Assembly: GCF_007992215.1 (NCBI RefSeq)
Contig: NZ_BJZV01000002.1
Location: forward strand, 310,001 to 374,000
DNA length: 64,000 bases
Reading direction: 5' to 3'
From: Methylobacterium gnaphalii
Lineage (GTDB): Bacteria; Pseudomonadota; Alphaproteobacteria; Rhizobiales; Beijerinckiaceae
Part shown: piece by piece, positions 33,560 to 52,903 of the stretch
Position numbering within the stretch: the first letter of the stretch is position 1
Layout: each line of letters begins with the position of its first letter
The notes under the pieces: generated by a model
The model's database searches: none
Told to the model about the DNA's origin: nothing
What the model saw: the letters and a program-made list of their open reading frames with translations, nothing else
Position numbers and translations under genes: made by a program

Positions 33560-33868
33560 TATACGGGCGGCTCGCAGTCGTTCAACGCGGTCAACAACCT
33601 GCGGGTCCTCGGGCGCTGGATGCGGATGATCATCATCCCGAACCAATCATCGGTGCCGATGGCGTACAAGGAGTTCGACGACGCCGGGCGGATAAAGGCG
33701 GGGCCGCTCTGCGACCGCGTGGTGGTTGTCCGCGAGGAGCTGATGAAGTTCACGCTGCTGACCCGGGAACGGGCCGACTACCTTGTGGACCGCTATTCCG
33801 AGCGCAAGAAGCGCGAACCGGAGCGCCTGGAAGCCGTCGCCACCGATATTGAGTTCATGAAGCGCTGA
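33551..33868 (+). pseudogene. arsH: C-terminal fragment of arsH
   Basis: The frame encodes [20 protein letters not shown], then [10 protein letters not shown] and [14 protein letters not shown]-like sequence ending DRYSERKK, closely following the C-terminal third of ArsH, an NADPH-dependent flavin oxidoreductase of organoarsenical resistance. The N-terminal flavodoxin-fold residues are missing. An in-frame TGA at 33548-33550 bounds it on the left. The ATG at 33620 could start an 82-residue peptide, but this would not be functional. Confidence 0.88.
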
Positions 33869-34043
33869 AGCCTCCTGGCTGACGGATGTAAGGCCAGGCC
33901 TGCATCGTTGGGCTCACCATCACGACGTTGATGGTCAAGTACAGCGGGCTTCGTGGATGGCCTCAGGGAAGGAACGGCTTGGCCATGCCGGCATTGTCCC
34001 CCTCGCACGCCTTTGAGGTTGCGGCACCAACGGTCCCGGGAAG

Positions 34044-34733
34044 ATGACGGCGGGTACGAGCATTCCGGGAACGGCACCGACCGACGCCGCGCCCGCTCGC
34101 GAAAACCGCACCGGCTACAACAATCGCGACGCCATCAGGCTGCTCTTCATCCTGGCCCTGGGCAGCGAGCCGGTCGACCCCGCACGAGCCGCCCCGGGCG
34201 ACCCCCGGGTGTTCCGCGGCGAAAAGCGGGCGATGGCCATGGATTTTCTCGTCCGATATCCCGACTACCTCGCCGATGCCCTGCTGGACCGCTACGAGGC
34301 AGAGGCCGACGCCTCCTTTCTCGCGCAGGCCGAGGCGATCTTCGATGCCGACGAGCCCAGCGTCAGGCTGGTTGGCATGGTGCGGTGGCACCGGGGCGCC
34401 TTCCAGAACATCGAGACCGCCCTCTCCATCCTCCGGGCCTACGGGATGGTGACGCCGCTGCGCCAGGCTGGCGGCCATCGGCGGCACGATTTCCGGATCG
34501 AGCCGCCGGCGTTCCCGTTCATGGAGGAAATGATCCGGGAGCATCCGTTGCTTGCCTGGTACCGGGACCGGGCCGGGCTGGTATCGACGCTCGCCGGCCT
34601 ACGCAGCGGGTCCAGCCTCAAGGACGAGCAGTACCTCCACCAGGAATACAGGGACGCGCCGCTCGGCACCGAGATCCCGTCCATCAAGGACCGGGTGCTG
34701 GCCCGCATCCGGCGGCTGAGGAACAAGGCATGA
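34044..34733 (+). CDS. Candidate ABC-3C middle component (winged-helix-like)
   Basis: A 229-residue soluble protein with a GGGAAG site before the ATG. The N-terminal part has a helical segment with EKRAMAMDFLVRYPDYLADALL. Residues about 110-165 look like a winged helix: a helix (FQNIETALSILRAYGMV), a basic turn and a strand pair. The C-terminus is basic. This pattern resembles the middle components of ABC-three-component systems, which bridge the ATPase and the effector. Its stop overlaps the next ATG (ATGA). The identification rests on pattern memory and operon order; the protein may belong to another SMC-linked family. Confidence 0.6.
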   Translation: MTAGTSIPGTAPTDAAPARENRTGYNNRDAIRLLFILALGSEPVDPARAAPGDPRVFRGEKRAMAMDFLVRYPDYLADALLDRYEAEADASFLAQAEAIFDADEPSVRLVGMVRWHRGAFQNIETALSILRAYGMVTPLRQAGGHRRHDFRIEPPAFPFMEEMIREHPLLAWYRDRAGLVSTLAGLRSGSSLKDEQYLHQEYRDAPLGTEIPSIKDRVLARIRRLRNKA

Positions 34734-36706
34734 CGGCGACGCCGACGAATGCGGACGATTGGGTCGGGACGATTGCGACGAAGGCCAAGGTCCCGCCCGA
34801 GGAGGTCCAGGCCGTCCTCGACCGGCACGGCATCCTGCCTCAGGCGGCGTTGCCGCGTCGCCGTCAGCTTCGCCTCGCGTATATCGCGCTGGCCGGACGG
34901 AAGCAGGGCACCGACGACGATCGCGACATCGATTTTCGTTGGCCCCAGGGCGACGGCGAGATGGGGGCCGGGCTCTGGGCCTTCCTGTCGGACAGGAATT
35001 CGCGGGGCAAGTCGAGCCTGCTCAACCTCATCCAGGCCGCGTTGCGCGGCGAATTCCCCGGTATCGTGAAGCCCGACGTCTGGGGATGGCTCAGCCTCGT
35101 CGAGGTAGCCTTCCGCATCGACGCCACCCCCTATCGCGTACGGGTCGAGAAGGAGGTAGGCGAGGTCGATCCGCGCATGGCCCGTGGGACACTCTCGCGC
35201 GGCGAAGGCGATGCGCGGATCGACCTCTATGCTGGTTCGGCCGACAAGCCCTTCGAGAAGGCCGTGGCCGACAACATGATGGAGGAGTTCGGCTTCGGCT
35301 CCTTCCACGCCTTTAACAAGGCGTACGGTCCGCGTACCCACGGCTGGAACGCCATCGCCACCTCGTTCTTCGTCCACGGGCCTGGCTCGGCGGTCTTCGG
35401 CAACGTGACCCGCGACGGCGTGCCCCTGCGCCTGCTGCAGATGTTCATGGGCCTGCCGTGGATCACCACCTACTCAGCGGCGTCCACGGCGTTCAAGAAG
35501 GTGTGCGCCGAAGGCGAGAAGGCCTCGTCGGCAGACCCGGCCAGGGGACGGCTGGCCGAGCGTCTCAAGGCGACCGAACAGGAGCTGGACGACCTGCGGG
35601 CCCGAAGCGGGACGCGGGTCGACCGCCCGCGCCTTCGCTTGGACCTCGTGACCCGCGACAGGGAGACGATGCCCCTTCGCGCGGCGGTCGCCCTGGCGGA
35701 GGAACGCGTCGACACCCTCGACCGACAGGCCTCCGCGGCGCGGGGGTCGGTGGCCGAGCTCAAGCGGACCCTGCAGCAAATGCGGGACGAGATGGCGGCG
35801 GGGATGGTGTTCAGGCGGCTTCGACCGGTGTGCTGCCCGTCCTGTGACAACGGCATCGACGCGAAGCGTTTCAACACCGCGGAAGGCGGCGGGACGTGCG
35901 CCCTTTGCGGCGAGAAACATGTCGAGGAAGATGACGAGGGCCCTCGCATCGACGACCTGCAGGCCGACGTGTGCGAGGCCGAGCAGGTTGTCGCCCGCCT
36001 GAACGCGGAGCTCGCCGCGGCGAGGCGGCGCCTGCGCGAGTCTGAAGCGGAGCGCGACGTCAATCAGGCGCGCATCGGCGAAATCGCGGCGGAACTCGCC
36101 TCGGTCGAGGATCCCGATACGGAGTTCCGCGTCAGGGCCCTGGAGGCGCAGGCCGAGCAGCTCAGGGAGATCATCGCGGAGGTCGCGGCGCCGGCGGCGA
36201 CCGCCGTGGCGGACGACGCCGCGGTCCTGCGCCAGGTCGAGAAGGTGACCCGCGAACTGTTCGACGACATGCAGCGAGACGTCCTGAAGGAGGTGTCCGA
36301 CGAGGTAGCCGCCCTCTCCCGGCGCTTCGGCGTCCAACACGTCGAGGGCATGGATTGGTCCGGCAACAACACTCTCGCCATCCGGCAAGGCGGGGCTGAC
36401 ATCACGTTCTCGGACCTGTCACCCGGCGAGAACCTCCGGGTGCGCATCGCCGCGGCCCTGGCGGTCGTCGCCGTCGCGCGCCGCCGCCGCTTCGGGCGAT
36501 ACCCGGGCCTGCTCGTTCTCGACAGCCCGCGCTCGCAGGAGATGACCGACGACGATTTCGCCGCATTGATGGCGAGCGTGCAGGAGGTCATCAACGAGAC
36601 AGGCGACGCCCAGGTCATCGTCGGAGCGGCCACCAAGCCCGCGCTGGTGGGAGTTGTCCCAGGCCAGCAAACGCTCCACGCTCAAGGCAACCGATTCCTT
36701 TTCTGA
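34730..36706 (+). CDS. SMC/Rad50-like ABC ATPase with zinc module
   Basis: This 658-residue ATPase starts at the ATG overlapping the previous stop; the open frame 259 codons upstream is a shadow. The P-loop is SDRNSRGKSSLL (about 87-98), with Asn-Ser-Arg before GKSS. The coiled-coil arms (about 270-360 and 400-520) flank CCPSC (369-372) and CALC (390-393), a zinc-ribbon or hook-like tip. The ABC signature LSPGE is at 563-567. Walker B reads LLVLDSP at 594-600, with Ser where most ABC proteins have Glu, as in some ABC-3C ATPases. Short arms separate it from true SMC proteins. It is probably the engine of a DNA-surveillance complex. Confidence 0.8.
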   Translation: MTATPTNADDWVGTIATKAKVPPEEVQAVLDRHGILPQAALPRRRQLRLAYIALAGRKQGTDDDRDIDFRWPQGDGEMGAGLWAFLSDRNSRGKSSLLNLIQAALRGEFPGIVKPDVWGWLSLVEVAFRIDATPYRVRVEKEVGEVDPRMARGTLSRGEGDARIDLYAGSADKPFEKAVADNMMEEFGFGSFHAFNKAYGPRTHGWNAIATSFFVHGPGSAVFGNVTRDGVPLRLLQMFMGLPWITTYSAASTAFKKVCAEGEKASSADPARGRLAERLKATEQELDDLRARSGTRVDRPRLRLDLVTRDRETMPLRAAVALAEERVDTLDRQASAARGSVAELKRTLQQMRDEMAAGMVFRRLRPVCCPSCDNGIDAKRFNTAEGGGTCALCGEKHVEEDDEGPRIDDLQADVCEAEQVVARLNAELAAARRRLRESEAERDVNQARIGEIAAELASVEDPDTEFRVRALEAQAEQLREIIAEVAAPAATAVADDAAVLRQVEKVTRELFDDMQRDVLKEVSDEVAALSRRFGVQHVEGMDWSGNNTLAIRQGGADITFSDLSPGENLRVRIAAALAVVAVARRRRFGRYPGLLVLDSPRSQEMTDDDFAALMASVQEVINETGDAQVIVGAATKPALVGVVPGQQTLHAQGNRFLF

Positions 36707-38645
36707 GACGGGTTCCACGGTGGCGGAGGACGTTCTGCGACGGCTTCTGACCGAGGGGAGCGGCGAACCCGCCGACCTCTCGTCCGTCTCGTCGGCGCAA
36801 TTACGGGAGGTCGTCCGTGGATCGGCGCGGGGCTTCGGAGGGGCCGACCTGTTCGTCGCCCTGGCCTCCCATCCCAACGTCGAAAAAACCATTCTGGCCG
36901 CGGTCGAGATCGTCCGCGAGGCCGGCGACGTCGTCGCGATGGTCGGCATCGCCGCCTGGCTCAGCCATGGTGGCCGGTTGCGCCCAGAGGACGCGAGCGC
37001 GCTCGGGCGTGCGTTCCTGGAACGCGCCGGGGACCGCACCGGCGATTACGGCACGCGCGCCCACGCGCTCAAGGCGGCGATGATCCTCGCCCAGTCGGAC
37101 CGCGCCCTCCTGCGACGGCTTCAGGCGGAGATGATCGATCTCGACCCGGCGGACGACGGTGACTTCCTGCGCCATGCCGCCGCGATCACGGGCGCCCTCC
37201 TTGCACGCGGTCCGGACCCGGATCTGCACGCGGTCCTGGGCAAGCTCCTCGACGTCGAGGAGGCGGAGGACGAGGTCGCCATGGAACTCGGGCTCGACGC
37301 ACTCCGTGCCGGTCTCGACGCGACGACGCAGGACGATGCGCTCCGGTCGTTCCGGGAGGCCCGGGACTGGTTTGTGCGGTCCGAGGCGACGAGCGACGAG
37401 CGCCCGGACGCACGGCTGTATCGCCGCTGCCTGGACATGCTGGTCGCGTTCCAGACCGGCCGGCCCCAAGGCGATGTCCGTGTCGGCATCGACGGCATCA
37501 AGGAGGCCGCCTTCGCGTACACGGCCTACCTCTCGCCCTCCGACCGCCCCGAGGAGACGTCGTCCTGGCTCGGTGCCCGGGGCCGGGAGCGCGTCCACTG
37601 GTCGATGCTCGCACTCAGGCTGGGCGCCCTCGACACCAGCTTGGGTAAACGGGCCTGGCTCAACGCCGCCGCCGTCATCCAGGACGAGCTCGTGTCCGTC
37701 TACTCGGCGAGCCGCAGCATCATGGTGCGCCGCGAGGACGGCGGCCTTGAGGCCGTCCTCCAGCCCCGAATCGTCGGTGCCCTGAAACGCGAACTGCATT
37801 CCCTGGACACCCTCGGCCAATGGATCGAGGAAAATGCCAGTTCGGGCCTTTTGCCCGACGTCGCGGGGCTCCGTACCCTGGTTGCCGACGCCCACGAGGG
37901 AGTGGTCGCCCACCGCCCTACTGAGGCGGCGACCGGGAGCTCACCGGTCACCGCCATCCTGGAGAGCATCCCCGAGGCCGGCCGGGCATCGGCGATGGCG
38001 CGCGTCGCTGGCGCCATGACGACGCTCGTCGACGAGAGCACCTCCGTGGTGGTCTCGGACCTGTTCGACCGCATCCTGGAAGCCCTCGGCGGGAACGAGC
38101 ACTACCGTAGGCACCAGGACGCCCGCAGCCTCTTCGAGGTCGCCCTCTGGATGACCACCCTGTTCGTCGTCCAGCGGAGCAATGTCAGTTCCAGCACGTT
38201 CAGGCGGGTCAAGTATCTCTTCGAGCGGGATCCGGCCAAGCTGCCGCTGGAGGAAGTCCTCCAAGAGGACTACCTCGATTTCCTGTGCGGCTCCCCCCTC
38301 GCCGGGATACTCGGCGCCGAGGCCAGCGACGTCGCCGGGGGGCGCGTCGACGTCCTGTTCAAGCACATGCGCACGACCTTCGTCGCGGAGTTGAAGAAGA
38401 CGGACCGCAAGCTCACGAACGCGCAGGTCGTGGACGAGTACGGGCTCCAGAAGGTGGCTTACGACGTGACGAATGTCAGCTTCGGCATCCTGATGATGCT
38501 CGACCTTCACGACCTGGGCGGCGGTCAGCCGGACGTCGCCGAGCGGATCTCAGTCCACCACGTCACACCGCCCTGGGGCACTACGGAGCACGCCGTCGTC
38601 CTCTTCCGGGTCCAGGGGCGCCGTAAGACTCCGTCGAAACTCTGA
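36654..38645 (+). CDS. Helical-repeat protein with C-terminal PD-(D/E)XK-like nuclease motif
   Basis: A 663-residue protein. Residues about 30-450 are Ala/Leu-rich helices in repeated pairs, suggesting a HEAT-like scaffold. The C-terminal region carries GRVDVLF, then FVAELKK: Asp566, Glu579 and Lys581 fit the D…ExK metal-dependent nuclease pattern, followed by a helix with a conserved-looking QKVAYDVTN. The ATG overlaps the ATPase gene by 53 bases; a GTG at 36720, 14 bases beyond the ATPase stop, is an alternative start. As third gene of the cassette it is the likely effector. Confidence 0.65.
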   Translation: MSQASKRSTLKATDSFSETGSTVAEDVLRRLLTEGSGEPADLSSVSSAQLREVVRGSARGFGGADLFVALASHPNVEKTILAAVEIVREAGDVVAMVGIAAWLSHGGRLRPEDASALGRAFLERAGDRTGDYGTRAHALKAAMILAQSDRALLRRLQAEMIDLDPADDGDFLRHAAAITGALLARGPDPDLHAVLGKLLDVEEAEDEVAMELGLDALRAGLDATTQDDALRSFREARDWFVRSEATSDERPDARLYRRCLDMLVAFQTGRPQGDVRVGIDGIKEAAFAYTAYLSPSDRPEETSSWLGARGRERVHWSMLALRLGALDTSLGKRAWLNAAAVIQDELVSVYSASRSIMVRREDGGLEAVLQPRIVGALKRELHSLDTLGQWIEENASSGLLPDVAGLRTLVADAHEGVVAHRPTEAATGSSPVTAILESIPEAGRASAMARVAGAMTTLVDESTSVVVSDLFDRILEALGGNEHYRRHQDARSLFEVALWMTTLFVVQRSNVSSSTFRRVKYLFERDPAKLPLEEVLQEDYLDFLCGSPLAGILGAEASDVAGGRVDVLFKHMRTTFVAELKKTDRKLTNAQVVDEYGLQKVAYDVTNVSFGILMMLDLHDLGGGQPDVAERISVHHVTPPWGTTEHAVVLFRVQGRRKTPSKL

Positions 38646-38924
38646 GGATGCCGAGGTCCGGGCGCGGGCCCGTCTCCCGTCACCGGTCGGGCTTCGACGG
38701 GGCGAGCCGGGCTCGCTCCACATGAGCGGGCGATACCGGCCGCTTTGGAACTGCTCGCCGTCGGTGCGCTCGGCGAAGTAGGCGTCCATCGGCCTGACCC
38801 CCTGCGTCACCGTCTCCATGAGCGCTGTCACGAGGACCTGCCCTTCGCCGAGCAGCGCCTCCCGCAGCCGGTTGGCCAAGGCATCCAAGATTACGCCGCC
38901 GGGAAGCGGCACCGTCTCCGGCAT
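38550..38924 (-). pseudogene. Probable 3'-truncated hypothetical gene
   Basis: The first 70 residues look natural (VILDALANRLREALL and MDAYFAERTDGEQF). After base 38700 the translation becomes Arg/Ser/Pro-rich and runs into the 3' end of the nuclease gene on the other strand. The real gene has probably lost its 3' part where the three-gene cassette was inserted. It lies 15 bases after the gene at 38940-39188, in the same direction. No domain is recognised. Confidence 0.4.
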
Positions 38925-38939
38925 CGCGAAGGACCGGAC

Positions 38940-39188
38940 TTATGGATGCGCCTCGTCGAAGGTAACCAGTTGCTGCTGCCACGGGTCGATCGCCCGGCGT
39001 CCGAGAAGCCGTCGCAGCGTCTCCGCATCGACGTCGAACCGCAGCGCCTCGTAACAGCGCCGCCGTCCAAGTTCACCGGCGAGCGCCCTTATGACGCCTT
39101 GCGCACCGTCGAACTCTCGTTCGAGATCATAAGTTCGGAGATTCAGGTAAGGACGCACCATCGACTCGACCATGAATCCTAAGGCCAA
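38940..39188 (-). CDS. Hypothetical protein
   Basis: An 82-residue soluble protein, mostly charged helices (EREFDGAQGVIRALAGELG), with no motif I recognise. An internal ATG six codons in is an alternative start. With the following truncated frame it forms an old two-gene unit at the right edge of the SMC-like cassette. Confidence 0.45.
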   Translation of the reverse strand: MALGFMVESMVRPYLNLRTYDLEREFDGAQGVIRALAGELGRRRCYEALRFDVDAETLRRLLGRRAIDPWQQQLVTFDEAHP

Positions 39189-40483: not shown

Positions 40484-42514
40484 GTGCTGCTCCGCCGCCA
40501 CAGCCGGACCGTCGCCTTGCTCTACCTCCCGTCCTCGTCCTTCGTTCGCCTCGACGCCTATGCGCCCATGCTCCTGCCGCAGGCGGAGCAGCATCGCCTG
40601 GCAGAGACGTTCCGCGCCCGCGTTAACGTCGGCCCCCGCGCAGCCCACGCAAGGACGCTTCATCCCGACCTTGAGGGCGCCAAGGGCAAGGTGAGCCTGA
40701 TGCGAGTGACCGGCAACGCCGGCGAGGAGCGCTGGGAGACCCGCGTCGTCACCGTCGGCGAGCTCGCCACGTCCGACGCCCTGCTTTGGGCGACACACAT
40801 CAGCATGCAGCGATTCTACGGCGCCCGCGGCAGCACGAGTCTCGTCCAGCTTCGGTCCCTCATCGCGGACGCGGACTGCCACGACCAGGCCGCCTTCCGC
40901 GGACTCAGCCCCGAGGAGATGGCCGGCATCCTGATCGAGCGTCTGCGCGCGGCGGGCAAGCCCCTGCCGTCCTACGTTCTCTTTAGCGGCCGCGGCCTGC
41001 ACCTCGTTTGGGTGCACCAGCCGCTCATGGCGACGCCAGGCATCACGCGGCGGCACCGCTCCGTCCAGCGCCACATGCACGGACCCAAGGGCGGCGTTCC
41101 GTCCGCGACGGTCCGGACCGCCTCGGGCACCCGTCTGCAGGACCCCGAGGTCATCGCCCACGAGGAGAGGATGGCTGCGGTCTGGCGCGGCACCGGCCTC
41201 GACCGCGGCGCCTCGGACACCGCTCGCGTCCTGCGCCTCGCCGGGTCGTACAACGCGAAATCCGGGCAGGTCGCGCGGCTGGTCTGGCCAGCATCCTGGA
41301 CCGACGTGGTCGAGCACGATTTTGAGGACCTCGCGACGTCGTTCCTGCCCTACACCCGGGAGCAAATGGCGGCCATCAAGGCCGAGCGCGATGCCTCGTG
41401 GCGTCAGCGCGAGGCCGTCCGCCAGGAGCGACGCGCCGAGCAGGAGGCCGCCGGCATTACGCTCGTGGAGGAACAGACCCGGCGCCGGATTTCCGGCGGA
41501 TACTGGGCGAGCGTCGTCGATGCCCTCGATGCCATCCGGGTGTGGTGGGGCGGGACGCCTCCTGAGGGCAAGAGGGAGTTGTGGGGCTTCCTCTCGGCCT
41601 GCGCCATCGCCCAGGCTGAGGGTGGCGACGCGGCAACGTGGGCCTCGCGCCTCTGCAGACCAGCCGGCCTAACCGAGGGCGAGCTCCGGACGTCCCTCGG
41701 CGCCCTGGATCGGCAACTCCGGCGGCATGAAAACGGCGAGACCCGCGATCACGACGGCACAGAGCGGTCCGTCATCTACGAATACTCGAAGGCCCGGATG
41801 CTCAGCCTCCTCGGCCTGTCCGAGGACGACGCCCGGGCCGCCGGAGCCGGCGCGCTGCTGCCCGGCGGCGTCGCTCGGTCTGAGCGGGAGCGCAGCGCGT
41901 CCCGTCGCGCCGAGGCCGGCGTCCAGCCCCGAGCCGTCACCGTGTCCGCCCGGCTGGCTGACGGTCGCGAGGCCCTCGCCATGCAGGCGGTCGGGAAGGC
42001 GATGCGCGAGATCGTGGCGGCCTTCGGCGGGCGCCGCGGCGAGACCAGCCTCCGCCGGGCGATGGCCGAGGCGGCTGCCGAGCCTCTCGCCGAGACCCTG
42101 CCCGAGACCGTCGTAGCGGCCCCCGTCGAACCCGTCTCCGAAGCCCGGGGGGAACAGTCCGTCTCGGCTCCTCACGGTTCGACCGCTACTATAGTGGCCA
42201 TGCCGGGGGCCTTGCCCCCCTTGGGCGCCGAGACCGCTCCCGAGCCCTTCCACCACCCCCTTCTGGACCTGCCGGAGGGCGATTTCGACGCCCCGATCCT
42301 CTCACGGCACCTGGCAGCCCCGTACAGCGCATCGACTATCCGGATGAACGCGGACACCACCCCGTCGTCGCGAGCCCCGTTCCCGGCCTTCCCTGTGCCT
42401 CGGTCCGGAGCCGATCCGCTCCCGAACGCCCCGGTCTCCGATGCCGGAAGGGTCCCGGTCCCCGCCTTCCTCCTACGGTCTGCGAGAGTGTCCGGAGGGC
42501 GCGCTTCTCCTTGA
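40484..42514 (+). CDS. AEP-type primase-like protein of a mobile element
   Basis: A 676-residue protein with a GTG start; a TGA 30 bases upstream limits extension. The N-terminal third shows the three archaeo-eukaryotic primase motifs: DAD (129-131, followed by CH), SGRGLH (168-173) and a late ARVLRLAGSYNAKSG (about 247-261). They carry the metal-binding Asp, the nucleotide-binding His and the conserved Arg/Asn. A basic coiled-coil stretch lies at about 290-325. The last 200 residues are disordered and Pro/Ala-rich. No helicase motif is seen. Such proteins initiate replication of plasmids, phages and integrative elements. Confidence 0.7.
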   Translation: MLLRRHSRTVALLYLPSSSFVRLDAYAPMLLPQAEQHRLAETFRARVNVGPRAAHARTLHPDLEGAKGKVSLMRVTGNAGEERWETRVVTVGELATSDALLWATHISMQRFYGARGSTSLVQLRSLIADADCHDQAAFRGLSPEEMAGILIERLRAAGKPLPSYVLFSGRGLHLVWVHQPLMATPGITRRHRSVQRHMHGPKGGVPSATVRTASGTRLQDPEVIAHEERMAAVWRGTGLDRGASDTARVLRLAGSYNAKSGQVARLVWPASWTDVVEHDFEDLATSFLPYTREQMAAIKAERDASWRQREAVRQERRAEQEAAGITLVEEQTRRRISGGYWASVVDALDAIRVWWGGTPPEGKRELWGFLSACAIAQAEGGDAATWASRLCRPAGLTEGELRTSLGALDRQLRRHENGETRDHDGTERSVIYEYSKARMLSLLGLSEDDARAAGAGALLPGGVARSERERSASRRAEAGVQPRAVTVSARLADGREALAMQAVGKAMREIVAAFGGRRGETSLRRAMAEAAAEPLAETLPETVVAAPVEPVSEARGEQSVSAPHGSTATIVAMPGALPPLGAETAPEPFHHPLLDLPEGDFDAPILSRHLAAPYSASTIRMNADTTPSSRAPFPAFPVPRSGADPLPNAPVSDAGRVPVPAFLLRSARVSGGRASP

Positions 42515-44296: not shown

Positions 44297-45913
44297 TCAG
44301 TTCGCCGGGCCGACGTGCCGCCCGTCCAGGACGCACTCGACCAGGGCTTGGAGCGTCCGGACCGACCCGCCGCGCCAGTGTTCCGCCACCAGGTCGAGCT
44401 CGCCCGGCGTCAGGTCGGGCAGCCATAGCTCGTCGAGACCCCGCTCCCGGCGGACGTCGGCGGTGATGCCCTTGGCCAGGACGGGCAGCGAGGCGACCGT
44501 CGGTCGGGGCATGTCGATGACGCGGAACCGGGAGAGGAGCGCCGGGTCCAGGCCGTCCGTGCTGTTCGCCGTGGCGATGTAGGAGACGCCCGACAGGTCC
44601 ACGGCGCACTCCAGGAAGGGGTCATGGAAGAGCTTGGAGGTCTCCTTCTCGGTCAGGTTGAGAATTCCGTCGGTCAAGCGGCCGTTGTCCGTCCGCGTCC
44701 CGGCGCGCGAGATCTCGTCGAGGACGATCAGCACCGACGCCGCACCGGCCCGCTTGATGGCCTGCAGGGGGACGCAGGCGCGCCCCGTTGACCACTGCCG
44801 CGACGTGCCGATGAACGAGCCGTCCGCGACCGCGCCGCAGCCGTAGACCGTAACCGCCAAGCCGAGCTCCTCGCCGATCCTCCGGGCGAGCCGGCTCTTG
44901 CCGCTGCCGGGCGAGCCCCGCAGCAGGATCGGGGCCAGCCACGCGTACGGGCGCCCGGCGAGCGGCGCTAGGATGGCATCGATGATCCTCTCGCAGTCGG
45001 GAAACTCCCGCGCGAGGCGCCTCGTCACGCGCGCCAGGTCGGGCGCGACGACGAGGGGGAGCTGCCGGCCCGCGACAGGGGCATACTCGCCACGGGCGTT
45101 CGACGAGACCGAGCCGGGCTTTCCGTTGCTGTCGCCGTCCTTCACGCTGCCAGGAAGGTGCGCGACGGACGCCAGCACGAGTAGGCTCGGGCCGTCCTCG
45201 ATGGGCTCCCTGCGTGCCTCGGCGATGGCCTTGGCGAGCGCGGGCAGGCTTCCCACGGGGGCGGCCGACGCGACCGCGCCCCGGAGTTCGACGCGTCCGT
45301 GCCCGCGCCACTGCCCAACGACGTCCGTCAGCGCATGCTCCGGTAGCCATTGCACCCGGACCTCTCCCTGGAGAATGGTCCCGCCGACCGCGGTCGCGAG
45401 CAAGTCCTGCATGTCATCGTCGCCGGGGCTCGCGTCGCGGAGGGCCTGCCACGTCAGCGCGAGGAGATCCTGGGCAGCGGACCCTTCCCCGAGCCCGGCG
45501 CAGTAGAACGCGAGCCGGCCGCAGAGCTCGTCGAGCGGGTCCGAGAACCGACAGGACCGGTCGAAATCGATGTCAACCGCCGGCCGGAGGTCGAGCAGCC
45601 GTCCGAGCTCCGACCGCATCGCTGCGAGCTGAGTGTGGAAGGTTCGCATCGCACCGCGCCCTGGGCGGCCGCGCCGGCTGGCGTCGAGCAGGCGCGCAGC
45701 GGCGGTCCACGCTCCCTGGAGGAACTCGGCCATGGTCCAGGAATCCCCGACCAGCCGGTACAGGCCGAGGCGGTCGTCAACGACGAGGGGCGGCCACATC
45801 AGGGCGAGGTAGGCGTACAGGTCGCGGTGAACGCTCTCGCCGTAGAGCGGTGCGCCGGCGAGGAGTGCGCGCAGCGAAGCGGGCACCCCGAATGCGGGAG
45901 TGTTCTCGTCCAT
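44297..45913 (-). CDS. AAA+ ATPase, Lon-like module
   Basis: A 538-residue protein. The AAA+ core occupies about 310-480: Walker A RGSPGSGKS (332-340), Walker B VLIVLDE (394-400), sensor 1 IATAN (446-450) and the arginine finger in LLSRFRV (462). The N-terminal 300 residues are helical and unrecognised, and no protease domain follows. The core resembles Lon and RuvB-like remodelling enzymes. Among mobile-element genes it may remodel a replication or packaging complex, but no partner is identified. Confidence 0.8.
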   Translation of the reverse strand: MDENTPAFGVPASLRALLAGAPLYGESVHRDLYAYLALMWPPLVVDDRLGLYRLVGDSWTMAEFLQGAWTAAARLLDASRRGRPGRGAMRTFHTQLAAMRSELGRLLDLRPAVDIDFDRSCRFSDPLDELCGRLAFYCAGLGEGSAAQDLLALTWQALRDASPGDDDMQDLLATAVGGTILQGEVRVQWLPEHALTDVVGQWRGHGRVELRGAVASAAPVGSLPALAKAIAEARREPIEDGPSLLVLASVAHLPGSVKDGDSNGKPGSVSSNARGEYAPVAGRQLPLVVAPDLARVTRRLAREFPDCERIIDAILAPLAGRPYAWLAPILLRGSPGSGKSRLARRIGEELGLAVTVYGCGAVADGSFIGTSRQWSTGRACVPLQAIKRAGAASVLIVLDEISRAGTRTDNGRLTDGILNLTEKETSKLFHDPFLECAVDLSGVSYIATANSTDGLDPALLSRFRVIDMPRPTVASLPVLAKGITADVRRERGLDELWLPDLTPGELDLVAEHWRGGSVRTLQALVECVLDGRHVGPAN

Positions 45914-50516: not shown

Positions 50517-50707
50517 AGCCGTGCCACGTCTTTGCTGAGTATCTGCTGCGCGCAGGCGATGCAGTAATGGTCCCAACTCCGACCATTCCGAACCTTCAAC
50601 CTCATCTCACCCTTGACGATCCGGTGCTTCGAGTTTGCCTGGCATTCGTGCCCGCGTAGAGCGTGGTCGAAGGCTATCGTCTCGACCAGGGAGCGCACCC
50701 TAGGCAT
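50453..50707 (-). CDS. Small PARP-type-like zinc-finger protein coupled to the helicase
   Basis: An 84-residue protein starting MPRVRSLVETIAFDH. The motif HECQANSKHRIVKGEMRL, then W-D-HYC-xx-C, matches the outline of a PARP-type zinc finger (Cys, a Lys-Gly-Glu turn, then His and Cys ligands). Such fingers recognise DNA breaks. Its ATG overlaps the helicase stop by 8 bases, so the two are translationally coupled and probably act together. The ligand pattern is slightly unusual and the family call is inference. Confidence 0.6.
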   Translation of the reverse strand: MPRVRSLVETIAFDHALRGHECQANSKHRIVKGEMRLKVRNGRSWDHYCIACAQQILSKDVARLQMMLDVAAAPGQMPFAEEVA

Positions 50708-52502
50708 CGACGACGTCCGCAATGGCTCGGGCGACGATGCCATCAAAGTCCGCCTCGATGACATCGAGTTGTTGACGTGAGAACTCGCTTCGTTGGCCAG
50801 TGCCGAGCCCAACCGTCGCGTTGGCTTGGCGGTCTAGGGCTCCCTTCAGAATGACGTAGTTGGTCTTGCCCAGGTGCCGGCGGTCGAGGTCACGTCCATC
50901 ATGGCGCAGGCCCCGCTCACCGAGGATACGACCCACTGCAGTGCGGATACGCATATCGAGGGACTGTCGCATGGCTTGGCGTTCCCGAGCGCGGGTCGTC
51001 GGGACGGCCTCCAGTTCAACCGAAGCCTGTGTGATCTGCTCGGTGCTGTAGCCCTGCGCGTGGAGCTGCCGGAGCAGGTCGAGCGCCTCTGGGTTGTCCC
51101 GGATCAGGGGAATCTCCTGAAGATCGATGCCGCCCTGGGCCTGGACGTGGACCTGGTCCGGGAAATCCCGCGGTGCGGGCTCAATCTCGATCTCGTCGCC
51201 CCGCCCGAAGTCGAGGCCCTCGACCGGCAGTAGCTGATCGAAATAGTCCCGGTCGGCCTCGGTGTAGGCCTGGAAGTCGGTCCAGCGGCTGGCGATGTTC
51301 GCGCCCGCATGGAACACCACGACGCCCCGGTTCACGGGGGCATCGGGTGCCCCTTGTTCCACCACCCGCATAATGCGGCCAACGAACTGCACGAAGGGCG
51401 ACAGGTTCGCGAACAGACTGAACACCGCTGCAACGGCGAGCAGTGGATGGTCAAATCCCTCGCCCAACTTCCGCACCTGCACAATCACGTCAAGGCCGTT
51501 TGCTTGTAGGCGACCCATGACGCGCTCGTTCGCTACCGCGTCCTCACGGGAATGGACGTAGTCGGAACGGAGATTGCGCGCTCGGTAGGCCTCGACGACT
51601 TGGCGGCAGTGGTCAAAGTTCAGAACCGAGGCAATGATCTTAAGGTGAGGGTTGCCACTCTCGTTCCGAAGCCGCTGGAGTTCCCGGATTGACGCATCGA
51701 CGATTGTCGTCAGTGTCTCCTGTGAGGTCACGATCCCGCGCCGGAAATCCGCGTCCGTCTCCCCCAGCCGGCGCACCTCTTCAAGGCTTACGTCAACCTC
51801 AACGCCGTCCTCCTGTCGAACGTAGCGGAGGGTCCGGGGATTCAGGACCACCGCCTTAAGCCGCTTGACGTAGCCCTCTCGAATAGCTCGGACGATAGGG
51901 TACGAGTAAATGATGCGGCCGGACATTAGCTGCCCGTCCGACCGAAGGGGGGTGGCACTGAAATTCAGGATCCTGGCCTGCGGGAAGGTTGCCTTGAGGG
52001 TGTTCCAGCTCTGCGCAACCGTGTGGTGTCCCTCGTCGAACAGGATTAGGTCGAAGAAGTCAGGCGGCAATCCCTGGAGCCAGCGGTTATCCGCACCTGC
52101 AAGCTGCTGAATATTCGTGATGACGACGTGCGCTTCGTCCAAGTCGGCGCGGTTCGAAGTGCGTCCCCTGATCTCGACAGGCTCTGGCCAAGGACCACCC
52201 TGAAGCACGTTGCACTTTCGATAGAACATGGTGGGTGATGACGGGTCGAAGTCAGCCGCCAACTGCTGCGCAATGGCGACGTTGGGGGCGACGACGAGTG
52301 TGCGGCCAGATCCAAATGCGAACGGGGCCAGCGTGATGGTCCCGGACTTGCCGCAGCCAACCGGTAAAACGATACCTGCCTCTCGCTCGTCCTCGGTCGC
52401 GAACGTCGAAATGGCCTCGAATGCTTCCCGCTGCGGGGAGCGGATGCGCGGATTGCCAATAATTGACGGCTGTCTGTCGGCGAACGGACTGGGCAAGGGC
52501 AC
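50700..52502 (-). CDS. SF2 DEAD/DEAH-type helicase
   Basis: A 600-residue helicase resembling type I/III restriction motor subunits. Motif I is PVGCGKSG (47-54), motif II is DEGH (156-159), motif III is SATP (182-185) and motif VI is QFVGRIMR (372-379). The C-terminal 180 residues are an unrecognised accessory domain. No nuclease or methylase domain is seen. It lies next to the tRNA at the island edge and is followed by a small zinc-finger gene. Base use is less GC-rich than in the core. A role in defence or element maintenance is possible. Confidence 0.82.
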   Translation of the reverse strand: MPLPSPFADRQPSIIGNPRIRSPQREAFEAISTFATEDEREAGIVLPVGCGKSGTITLAPFAFGSGRTLVVAPNVAIAQQLAADFDPSSPTMFYRKCNVLQGGPWPEPVEIRGRTSNRADLDEAHVVITNIQQLAGADNRWLQGLPPDFFDLILFDEGHHTVAQSWNTLKATFPQARILNFSATPLRSDGQLMSGRIIYSYPIVRAIREGYVKRLKAVVLNPRTLRYVRQEDGVEVDVSLEEVRRLGETDADFRRGIVTSQETLTTIVDASIRELQRLRNESGNPHLKIIASVLNFDHCRQVVEAYRARNLRSDYVHSREDAVANERVMGRLQANGLDVIVQVRKLGEGFDHPLLAVAAVFSLFANLSPFVQFVGRIMRVVEQGAPDAPVNRGVVVFHAGANIASRWTDFQAYTEADRDYFDQLLPVEGLDFGRGDEIEIEPAPRDFPDQVHVQAQGGIDLQEIPLIRDNPEALDLLRQLHAQGYSTEQITQASVELEAVPTTRARERQAMRQSLDMRIRTAVGRILGERGLRHDGRDLDRRHLGKTNYVILKGALDRQANATVGLGTGQRSEFSRQQLDVIEADFDGIVARAIADVVDA

Positions 52503-52827: not shown

Positions 52828-52903
52828 TGGTGGGCCCGGCAGGACTCGAACCTGCAACCAGACCGTTATGAGCGGTCGGCTCTAACCATTGAGCTACAGG
52901 CCC
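52828..52903 (-). tRNA. tRNA with CAU anticodon, probably tRNA-Ile2
   Basis: The 76-base cloverleaf is complete. The acceptor stem GGGCCTG pairs with CGGGCCC (one G-U), the D arm is AGCTCAATGGTTAGAGC, and the anticodon stem GACCG/CGGTC holds the loop CTCATAA. The T arm is GCAGG-TTCGAGT-CCTGC, and A-CCA is encoded. CAU anticodons occur in initiator Met, elongator Met and Ile2. The short D loop and CTCATAA loop resemble the lysidine-modified Ile2 tRNA more than initiator Met; elongator Met is not excluded. Confidence 0.93.

What the first reader, a model, noticed from the sequence alone, without database searches (positions are those of the whole stretch)
34044..38645. Three-gene SMC-like ATPase / winged-helix / nuclease cassette, a candidate conflict system
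Seen: three overlapping plus-strand genes (ATGA overlap, then a 53-base overlap or a GTG start 14 bases on). The first encodes a 229-residue protein with a winged-helix-like segment. The second is a 658-residue ABC ATPase with GKSS, LSPGE and LDSP motifs and a CCPSC…CALC zinc tip. The third is a 663-residue helical protein ending in D566…E579-L-K581. Known: ABC-3C and Lamassu-type systems pair SMC-like ATPases with a small middle component and a nuclease or other effector. Inference: the complex senses aberrant or invading DNA and the nuclease executes. The helical scaffold plus a C-terminal nuclease of this length may represent an undescribed effector class.
Basis: partly seen in the sequence, partly recalled or inferred. 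Interest (0 to 1): 0.82.

Follow-up and report, generated by a model that had tools for sequence, protein, structure and literature searches.

The report
Lamassu-type defence operon with C-terminal nuclease
Three overlapping genes form a phage and plasmid defence set of an already catalogued kind (Lamassu), but with its gene order and the layout of its DNA-cutting protein reversed compared with the usual form.

Summary
The three genes are real, complete and overlapping. They match, nearly full length, PADLOC-DB models LmuC (E 1e-73), LmuB (1e-178) and LmuA (1e-155) of the Lamassu defence family. A C-terminal nuclease in LmuA is well supported by sequence: in 34 aligned relatives the only ten invariant columns lie at residues 533-603 and form a PD-(D/E)XK pattern; the predicted topology fits, at moderate to low confidence. 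LmuC is winged-helix-like. C-B-A order on one strand holds in 37 of 42 loci examined; three others are cut by contig ends, two are orphans. The unusual point is the layout: in 12 control Lamassu/ABC-3C loci the small gene directly precedes LmuB, and nine of ten control LmuA proteins scanned end in an ABC-3C docking domain. Here LmuA comes last, shows no such domain, and carries its nuclease at the C-terminus. Function (sensing abnormal DNA, then cleavage) is inferred, not shown.

The parts
34044..34733 (+). lmuC: 229-aa small component, predicted winged-helix-like
   Evidence: PADLOC LmuC PDLC03872 E 1.2e-73; AF2 mean pLDDT 83.7; VIA-align matches to many MarR/PadR winged-helix chains, Z 5.9-7.0, e.g. 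5h20 Z 7.0, rmsd 3.0, 92 aligned
34730..36706 (+). lmuB: 658-aa SMC/Rad50-like ABC ATPase
   Evidence: PADLOC LmuB PDLC03864 E 1.3e-178, four other LmuB models E < 1e-6; motifs conserved in 24 sequences
34997..35017 (+). Walker A region of LmuB, N90..G93-K94-S95
   Evidence: N90, G93, K94 invariant in 24 sequences
35834..35908 (+). four-cysteine zinc tip of LmuB, C369-P-x-C372 ... C390-x2-C393
   Evidence: C372, C390, C393 invariant, C369 in at least 90% of 24; 23 of 24 have both CPxC and a second CxxC
36416..36430 (+). ABC signature LSPGE of LmuB
   Evidence: G566 invariant, E567 nearly invariant; the preceding three residues vary
36521..36526 (+). Walker B D598-S599 of LmuB, no glutamate after the aspartate
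   Evidence: D598 and S599 invariant in 24 sequences
36720..38645 (+). lmuA: effector, 641 aa from GTG 36720 (663 aa if TTG 36654 is used)
   Evidence: PADLOC LmuA PDLC03853 E 1.2e-155 over residues 26-663
36720..38222 (+). N-terminal all-helical scaffold of LmuA (to about residue 523)
   Evidence: AF2 model, only helices to residue 523; best PDB alignments are HEAT-like scaffolds, Z up to 10.6, not specific for helical repeats
38250..38642 (+). C-terminal PD-(D/E)XK-type nuclease domain of LmuA (residues 533-663)
   Evidence: ten invariant columns, all between 533 and 603; predicted helix 533-545, strands 553-560, 563-571, 574-583, helix 589-601, strand 610-617; block pLDDT 83 at 531-540, 55-64 at 541-570, 80-90 at 571-600
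38349..38396 (+). putative catalytic residues D566, E579, K581 (numbered in the 663-aa form)
   Evidence: invariant in 34 sequences
33970..38655 (+). unit conserved with L001, L002 and L045 while flanks differ
   Evidence: blastn blocks 33970-38659, 33967-38654, 33970-38654 at 86-87% identity; in L003 the shared block is longer, 33566-39048; end alignments

Best explanation
It is a three-gene Lamassu-family defence operon, order lmuC-lmuB-lmuA, carried by a bacterium of (by inference) the genus Methylobacterium. Shown: gene structure, family matches, conserved motifs, synteny, purifying selection, sharing between relatives with different flanks. Inferred: LmuB dimerises by its zinc tip and ATPase heads and senses DNA ends, hairpins or replication intermediates of phages and plasmids; with no glutamate after the Walker B aspartate the ATP-bound state should be long-lived, making an on-switch. 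LmuC links the ATPase to the effector or to DNA by its winged helix. LmuA is held inactive through its long helical N-terminal scaffold, then released or rearranged (in characterised Lamassu, liberated and assembled into a tetramer) so that its C-terminal PD-(D/E)XK nuclease cuts DNA, destroying the invader and probably the infected cell.
For: Near full-length PADLOC matches for all three genes, and for 34 of 34, 24 of 24 and 25 of 25 aligned relatives of LmuA, LmuB and LmuC. All 24 LmuB also match the LmuB model PDLC03863, whose own loci carry LmuA and LmuC genes where I scanned them (L157, L160, L162). Ten invariant nuclease-type residues with fitting predicted topology. C-B-A synteny in 37 of 42 loci, with a 4- or 1-base overlap between C and B in 33 of the 36 loci where both starts were picked. 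Patchy presence: 21 of 199 genomes searched carry a near full-length LmuA match, all 21 in the window's genus; of 398 genomes drawn from the phylum 12 matched at E <= 0.001, 7 of them near full length, the window's own and one same-genus genome included. Plasmid-borne relatives in 16 of 72,556 plasmid records, 5 of them covering at least 80% of the query, Streptomyces (7) and Rhodococcus (2) among the 16. Reviews: Lamassu components essential wherever tested (PMC10586767, passages); LmuA liberated and forms a tetramer (PMC12409362, passages).
Against: No experiment on this subfamily was found. LmuA and LmuC match no other LmuA/LmuC model, and LmuC shows nothing to the ABC-3C middle component MC3 (hhalign P 0.82), so mechanism carried over from characterised Lamassu may not hold in detail. 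Pfam finds no nuclease in the window protein; among the 34 relatives only one matched Mrr_cat (0.0057) and one DpnII-MboI (0.23). hhalign of the nuclease region gave P 0.039 to Mrr, 0.16 to PDDEXK_1 and 0.59 to Cap4, against 0.15-0.38 for three unrelated controls: the motif is placed rightly on Mrr, but nothing is significant. Model confidence is only 55-64 over residues 541-570. Foldseek found no PDB match at E <= 0.001 for either model. Four of the 22 genus LmuA matches contain an internal stop by the tool's count.
Confidence: 0.88

Rival explanations
1. A housekeeping Rad50/SbcC-like DNA repair complex with its own nuclease, not a defence system.
For: LmuB shows weak similarity to Rad50 (NF003034 E 0.0096; PDB profile matches 3aux and 5f3w, E 0.002-0.006, beside two synthetic coiled coils).
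Against: Patchy: 21 of 199 genomes; plasmid-borne copies; flanks differ between close relatives; orphan and broken copies such as L051, L040, L080; best family matches are Lamassu.
Confidence: 0.06
2. An anti-plasmid or inter-plasmid competition system first and an anti-phage one second: it clears invading DNA directly, without killing the host.
For: Relatives sit on plasmids, three of 16 conjugative and five mobilizable by the listing, and two of those fetched lie beside transfer genes (L074, L080). V. cholerae DdmABC acts on plasmids as well as phages (PMC12409362, passages).
Against: Contigs of chromosome size in the genus carry it too (G101:C1, 6.99 Mb; G002:C3, 6.08 Mb). The DdmABC nuclease is described as cleaving DNA non-specifically, host chromosome included.
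Confidence: 0.25
3. The PD-(D/E)XK-like domain is structural or acts on RNA, and LmuA protects by another activity of its helical part.
For: No significant profile match to a known nuclease family; the fold search was filled by the helical part, so the domain itself was not tested.
Against: The only ten invariant columns of a 663-residue protein in 34 sequences are nuclease-type residues in the domain.
Confidence: 0.07

Closest known systems
PADLOC-DB Lamassu models PDLC03853 (LmuA), PDLC03864 (LmuB), PDLC03872 (LmuC)
   Same: Near full-length matches for all three genes
   Different: No difference found at family level; PADLOC's rows give no description of the effector or of a mechanism
Lamassu type II / ABC-3C, e.g. 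V. cholerae DdmABC
   Same: SMC-like ATPase of about 650 aa, small component, nuclease effector (reviews, passages)
   Different: Reviews place the effector domain at the N-terminus and possible docking at the C-terminus; here the nuclease is C-terminal and LmuA is last in the operon. DdmB is described with DUF6521; no Pfam match for LmuC here
Sister LmuB clade (PDLC03863) and MC3-type ABC-3C loci L157-L168
   Same: LmuB with a GKS Walker A in all 12; an LDSP-type Walker B in L157, L158, L160 and L163
   Different: Small gene directly before LmuB in 12 of 12, a gene of 303-450 aa before that in 10 of 12, ending in CTD6 or CTD7 in 9 of 10 scanned; at most one CxxC in LmuB, against two in 23 of 24 here
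Wadjet (JetABCD)
   Same: SMC-family sensor plus separate nuclease; window LmuB matches JetC models weakly (E 0.0025 at best)
   Different: LmuA and LmuC match no Jet model; the effector carries a PD-(D/E)XK-type motif, whereas JetD is described with a Toprim domain

Membership tests
Lamassu (PADLOC-DB) | SMC-like ATPase LmuB | tested here: met
   PDLC03864 E 1.3e-178 over 6-658; 24 of 24 aligned relatives
Lamassu (PADLOC-DB) | Effector LmuA encoded with LmuB | tested here: met
   PDLC03853 E 1.2e-155; 34 of 34 aligned relatives; same-strand cluster in 37 of 42 loci
Lamassu (PADLOC-DB) | Small component LmuC | tested here: met
   PDLC03872 E 1.2e-73; 25 of 25 aligned relatives
Lamassu (PADLOC-DB) | Anti-phage or anti-plasmid activity | not testable with these tools
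   No experiment; no paper on this subfamily seen in the searches, in a library that lacks the main Lamassu papers
ABC-3C (Pfam families; the defining paper, Krishnan et al. 2020, is not held) | Middle component matching a Pfam MC family | tested here: inconclusive
   No Pfam family for LmuC at E <= 1; no similarity to MC3 by hhalign; other MC families not compared by profile-profile methods
ABC-3C (Pfam families; the defining paper, Krishnan et al. 2020, is not held) | Effector with C-terminal ABC-3C docking domain (CTD) | tested here: not met
   No CTD match among 34 LmuA at E <= 1, while 9 of 10 control LmuA matched CTD6 or CTD7; the conserved nuclease motif reaches residue 603 of 663, leaving no room for a 130-residue CTD at the end. 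A diverged docking domain further inside is not excluded
PD-(D/E)XK nuclease superfamily | D...ExK motif on the core strands | tested here: met
   D566, E579, K581 invariant in 34, on predicted strands 563-571 and 574-583
PD-(D/E)XK nuclease superfamily | Fold match to a known member | tested here: inconclusive
Wadjet | Kleisin, KITE and Toprim subunits | tested here: not met
   The two non-ATPase genes match no Jet model in PADLOC and no Pfam or NCBIfam family at E <= 1

The most novel reading that the evidence does not exclude
This is a mechanistically distinct 'inverted' Lamassu class: the effector lacks an ABC-3C C-terminal docking domain and is controlled instead through a long N-terminal HEAT-like scaffold, with a wHTH small subunit not recognisably related to the known middle components tested, and a four-cysteine zinc tip that can hold zinc within one LmuB chain. 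The release-and-tetramerise step of characterised Lamassu would then be replaced by a different way of unleashing a tethered nuclease.
Probability: 0.3. Interest if true: 0.6.

Novelty: new member of a known kind. Interest (0 to 1): 0.35.

Why it matters
Reviews describe Lamassu effectors as N-terminal domains exchanged on a protein whose C-terminus may dock (passages). A branch found from Methylobacterium to Streptomyces plasmids, with nuclease and scaffold in the opposite order and no recognisable docking domain, offers a natural test of which parts of the activation mechanism are general. The ten invariant residues, the D-S Walker B and the four-cysteine tip give specific mutants to make.

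Tried and rejected
Pfam and NCBIfam: nothing for LmuA or LmuC, only weak coiled-coil, SMC and Rad50-type matches for LmuB, the best being an archaeal SMC-related protein model at 6.6e-11, far under its cut-off. PDB sequence searches with single proteins: no meaningful match; with profiles, Rad50 heads for LmuB, nothing for LmuC, and for LmuA the antiviral protein Ec2ApeA at E 0.028 over 44-148, not pursued. Foldseek: no match at E <= 0.001 for either model. VIA-align: the 50 LmuA rows shown lie on the helical part (PP2A A subunit, AP complexes and the like), Z at most 10.6, below what helical repeats give by chance; no nuclease is listed, which tells nothing about residues 533-663. The best single row for LmuC, 7yk3_D (a DarTG toxin-antitoxin chain, Z 8.3, rmsd 5.3), was not taken as a relationship. 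hhalign controls used sets cut from loci in which some rows came out empty; the Cap4 set held only two usable sequences. Weak LmuA matches fetched wide (L068-L072: G223, G273, G118, G040, second in G013) had no LmuA, LmuB or LmuC in my profile search and were dropped before the synteny count; the weak G148, G315 and G356 matches were not fetched wide. Of 16 plasmid hits, 12 were fetched; H10, H12, H13, H14 were not. No match in 50,697 phage records nor in viral contigs (a peptide-pattern search for close relatives only). A DefenseFinder label for this branch could not be looked up.

The 42 loci and 34 aligned proteins are not all independent: some are near-identical (L004 and L005 gave the same blastn rows). 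In one search the window and L001 print as 'BCA' only because the stop-to-stop frame of LmuB reaches upstream of LmuC; with the starts used the order is C-B-A.

Full report
1. Observation. The three genes are as described: 34044-34733, 34730-36706 and up to 38645, all on the + strand, the first pair overlapping in ATGA. The start of the third is open between TTG 36654 and GTG 36720. Ka/Ks against L001, L002, L003 and L049 is 0.16-0.40 in 12 comparisons, so all three look like selected genes.

2. Identity. PADLOC-DB names them LmuC, LmuB and LmuA, at E 1.2e-73, 1.3e-178 and 1.2e-155, each nearly full length. Pfam and NCBIfam name neither the first nor the third. Every aligned relative matches the same models: 34 of 34 LmuA, 24 of 24 LmuB, 25 of 25 LmuC. 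LmuB is the link to other Lamassu: all 24 also match PDLC03863. LmuA and LmuC match no other model of PADLOC-DB at E <= 0.001.

3. Nuclease. In A1 (34 sequences; the others 22-84% identical to the window protein) ten columns are invariant and all lie between residues 533 and 603: E533, D539, E556, G563, R564, D566, E579, K581, Q599, Y603. The AF2 model (22 sequences, mean pLDDT 75.3, pTM 0.58) puts them on helix 533-545, strands 553-560, 563-571, 574-583, and in or just after helix 589-601, with a further strand 610-617. Order and topology fit PD-(D/E)XK enzymes; the Q-x3-Y pattern recalls RecB/Cas4-type nucleases (recalled, not tested). Limits: block pLDDT is only 55-64 over 541-570, with 558-563 below 50; Pfam gave Mrr_cat for one of 34 at 0.0057 and DpnII-MboI for one at 0.23; hhalign P was 0.039 to Mrr, 0.16 to PDDEXK_1, 0.59 to a two-sequence Cap4 set, against 0.15, 0.29 and 0.38 for LmuB, LmuC and the LmuA helical part as controls; the domain alone was not folded.

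4. Other parts. LmuA is helical from residue 23 to 523; matches to HEAT-like scaffolds (Z at most 10.6) are not specific. LmuC (mean pLDDT 83.7) aligns with many MarR/PadR winged-helix chains at Z 5.9-7.0. LmuB has N90xxGK94, G566-E567 and D598-S599, the aspartate and serine invariant in 24: no glutamate follows the Walker B aspartate. A review notes a Glu-to-Gln change there in Lamassu and infers little or no hydrolysis (PMC10586767, passages). The tip carries CPxC plus a second CxxC in 23 of 24.

5. Synteny and spread. Of 42 loci with LmuA (window, L001-L007, L036-L051, L062-L067, L073-L084), C-B-A on one strand is seen in 36 (one gene is split into two frames in L040, L078 and L080) and in a 37th, L074, once the LmuC across the record start is counted. 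L046, L065 and L067 are cut by contig ends. L051, from the window's genus, has only LmuA, its tblastn match beginning at query residue 92, and L081, a Rhodococcus plasmid, has only LmuA. A near full-length LmuA match occurs in 21 of 199 genomes searched among relatives, 22 loci, all in the window's genus; four of the 22 contain an internal stop by the tool's count. That genus is Methylobacterium by inference: named hits L001-L005 are Methylobacterium and L002's contig has the length of G013:C16, a same-genus genome. In 398 genomes of the phylum 12 matched at E <= 0.001, 7 near full length; 16 of 72,556 plasmid records; no phage record. The DNA shared with L001, L002 and L045 stops within a few bases of 33970 and 38655, whereas L003 shares 33566-39048 and L049 also a piece at 33566-33856. 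So the trio is shared as a unit of about 4.7 kb, sometimes with more; transfer as a cassette is the inference.

6. Controls for layout. I fetched 12 loci with the sister LmuB (PDLC03863) or with MC3. In the gene tables the small gene, or MC3, sits directly upstream of LmuB in 11 of 12; in L166 my table omits it, but one search places MC3 there (G243). A gene of 303-450 aa precedes the small gene on the same strand in 10 of 12; in L158 and L167 my automatic gene choice shows none. These ten proteins were scanned with Pfam: nine end in CTD6 or CTD7, 'C-terminal domain of the ABC-three component systems'; L164 had no match. PADLOC calls the five large and five small proteins I gave it (L157, L160, L162, L165, L168) LmuA and LmuC; the other small and large genes are assigned by size, place or Pfam only. 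So order A-C-B and C-terminal docking are usual in this sample, and the window's branch has C-B-A, no CTD match in 34, and a C-terminal nuclease. This agrees with reviews that place the exchangeable effector at the N-terminus (PMC10586767; PMC11084316; passages read).

7. Mechanism. For characterised Lamassu, activation liberates LmuA, which assembles into a tetramer (PMC12409362, addendum passage), and DNA-end or hairpin sensing is proposed (PMC12904381, passages). By analogy this operon should sense abnormal DNA through LmuB/LmuC and cut DNA through LmuA. Only sequence-level steps are shown here.

8. Literature. Searches for Lamassu with LmuA, LmuB, cryo-EM, PDDEXK, Methylobacterium, LmuC/Cap4 and for ABC-3C (listings) gave no paper that I recognised as being on this branch, but the library lacks the main Lamassu papers tried, so I do not claim it is unpublished.

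9. Verdict. A real, intact member of a catalogued defence family; interesting for its inverted layout, not a new system.

Noticed in passing
window 2000-33000: The upstream half looks like a heavy-metal or cation resistance region: RND efflux, MerR-like and CzcD-like proteins by eye (no family scan of these). Six other Lamassu loci (L003, L004, L005, L044, L048, L050) share DNA with it, so the two may travel in the same islands.
   Followed up: partly
window 50700-52229: Helicase-like protein (ResIII E 3.8e-14, Helicase_C) matching only the later part of the ResIII profile, so perhaps N-terminally truncated, about 600 bases from a tRNA-Met gene (52828-52903).
   Followed up: no
window 44297-45913: 538-aa AAA ATPase (PF00004 E 7.4e-11), weak PADLOC similarity to IetA and TRIP13.
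   Followed up: no
window 40484-42514: 676-aa ORF without Pfam or PADLOC match at E <= 0.01, next to a dip in G+C to 0.59-0.61 at 38-41 kb; could belong to a mobile element.
   Followed up: no
L040, L078, L080, L051: Damaged copies of the operon: LmuA split in two frames (L040, L078), LmuB split (L080), LmuA alone (L051), suggesting loss as well as gain.
   Followed up: partly
L157-L168: The residue after the Walker B aspartate varies by Lamassu branch: D-S in L157, L158, L160, L163, D-T in L159, D-Q in the MC3-linked L165-L168, D-E in L164.
   Followed up: partly
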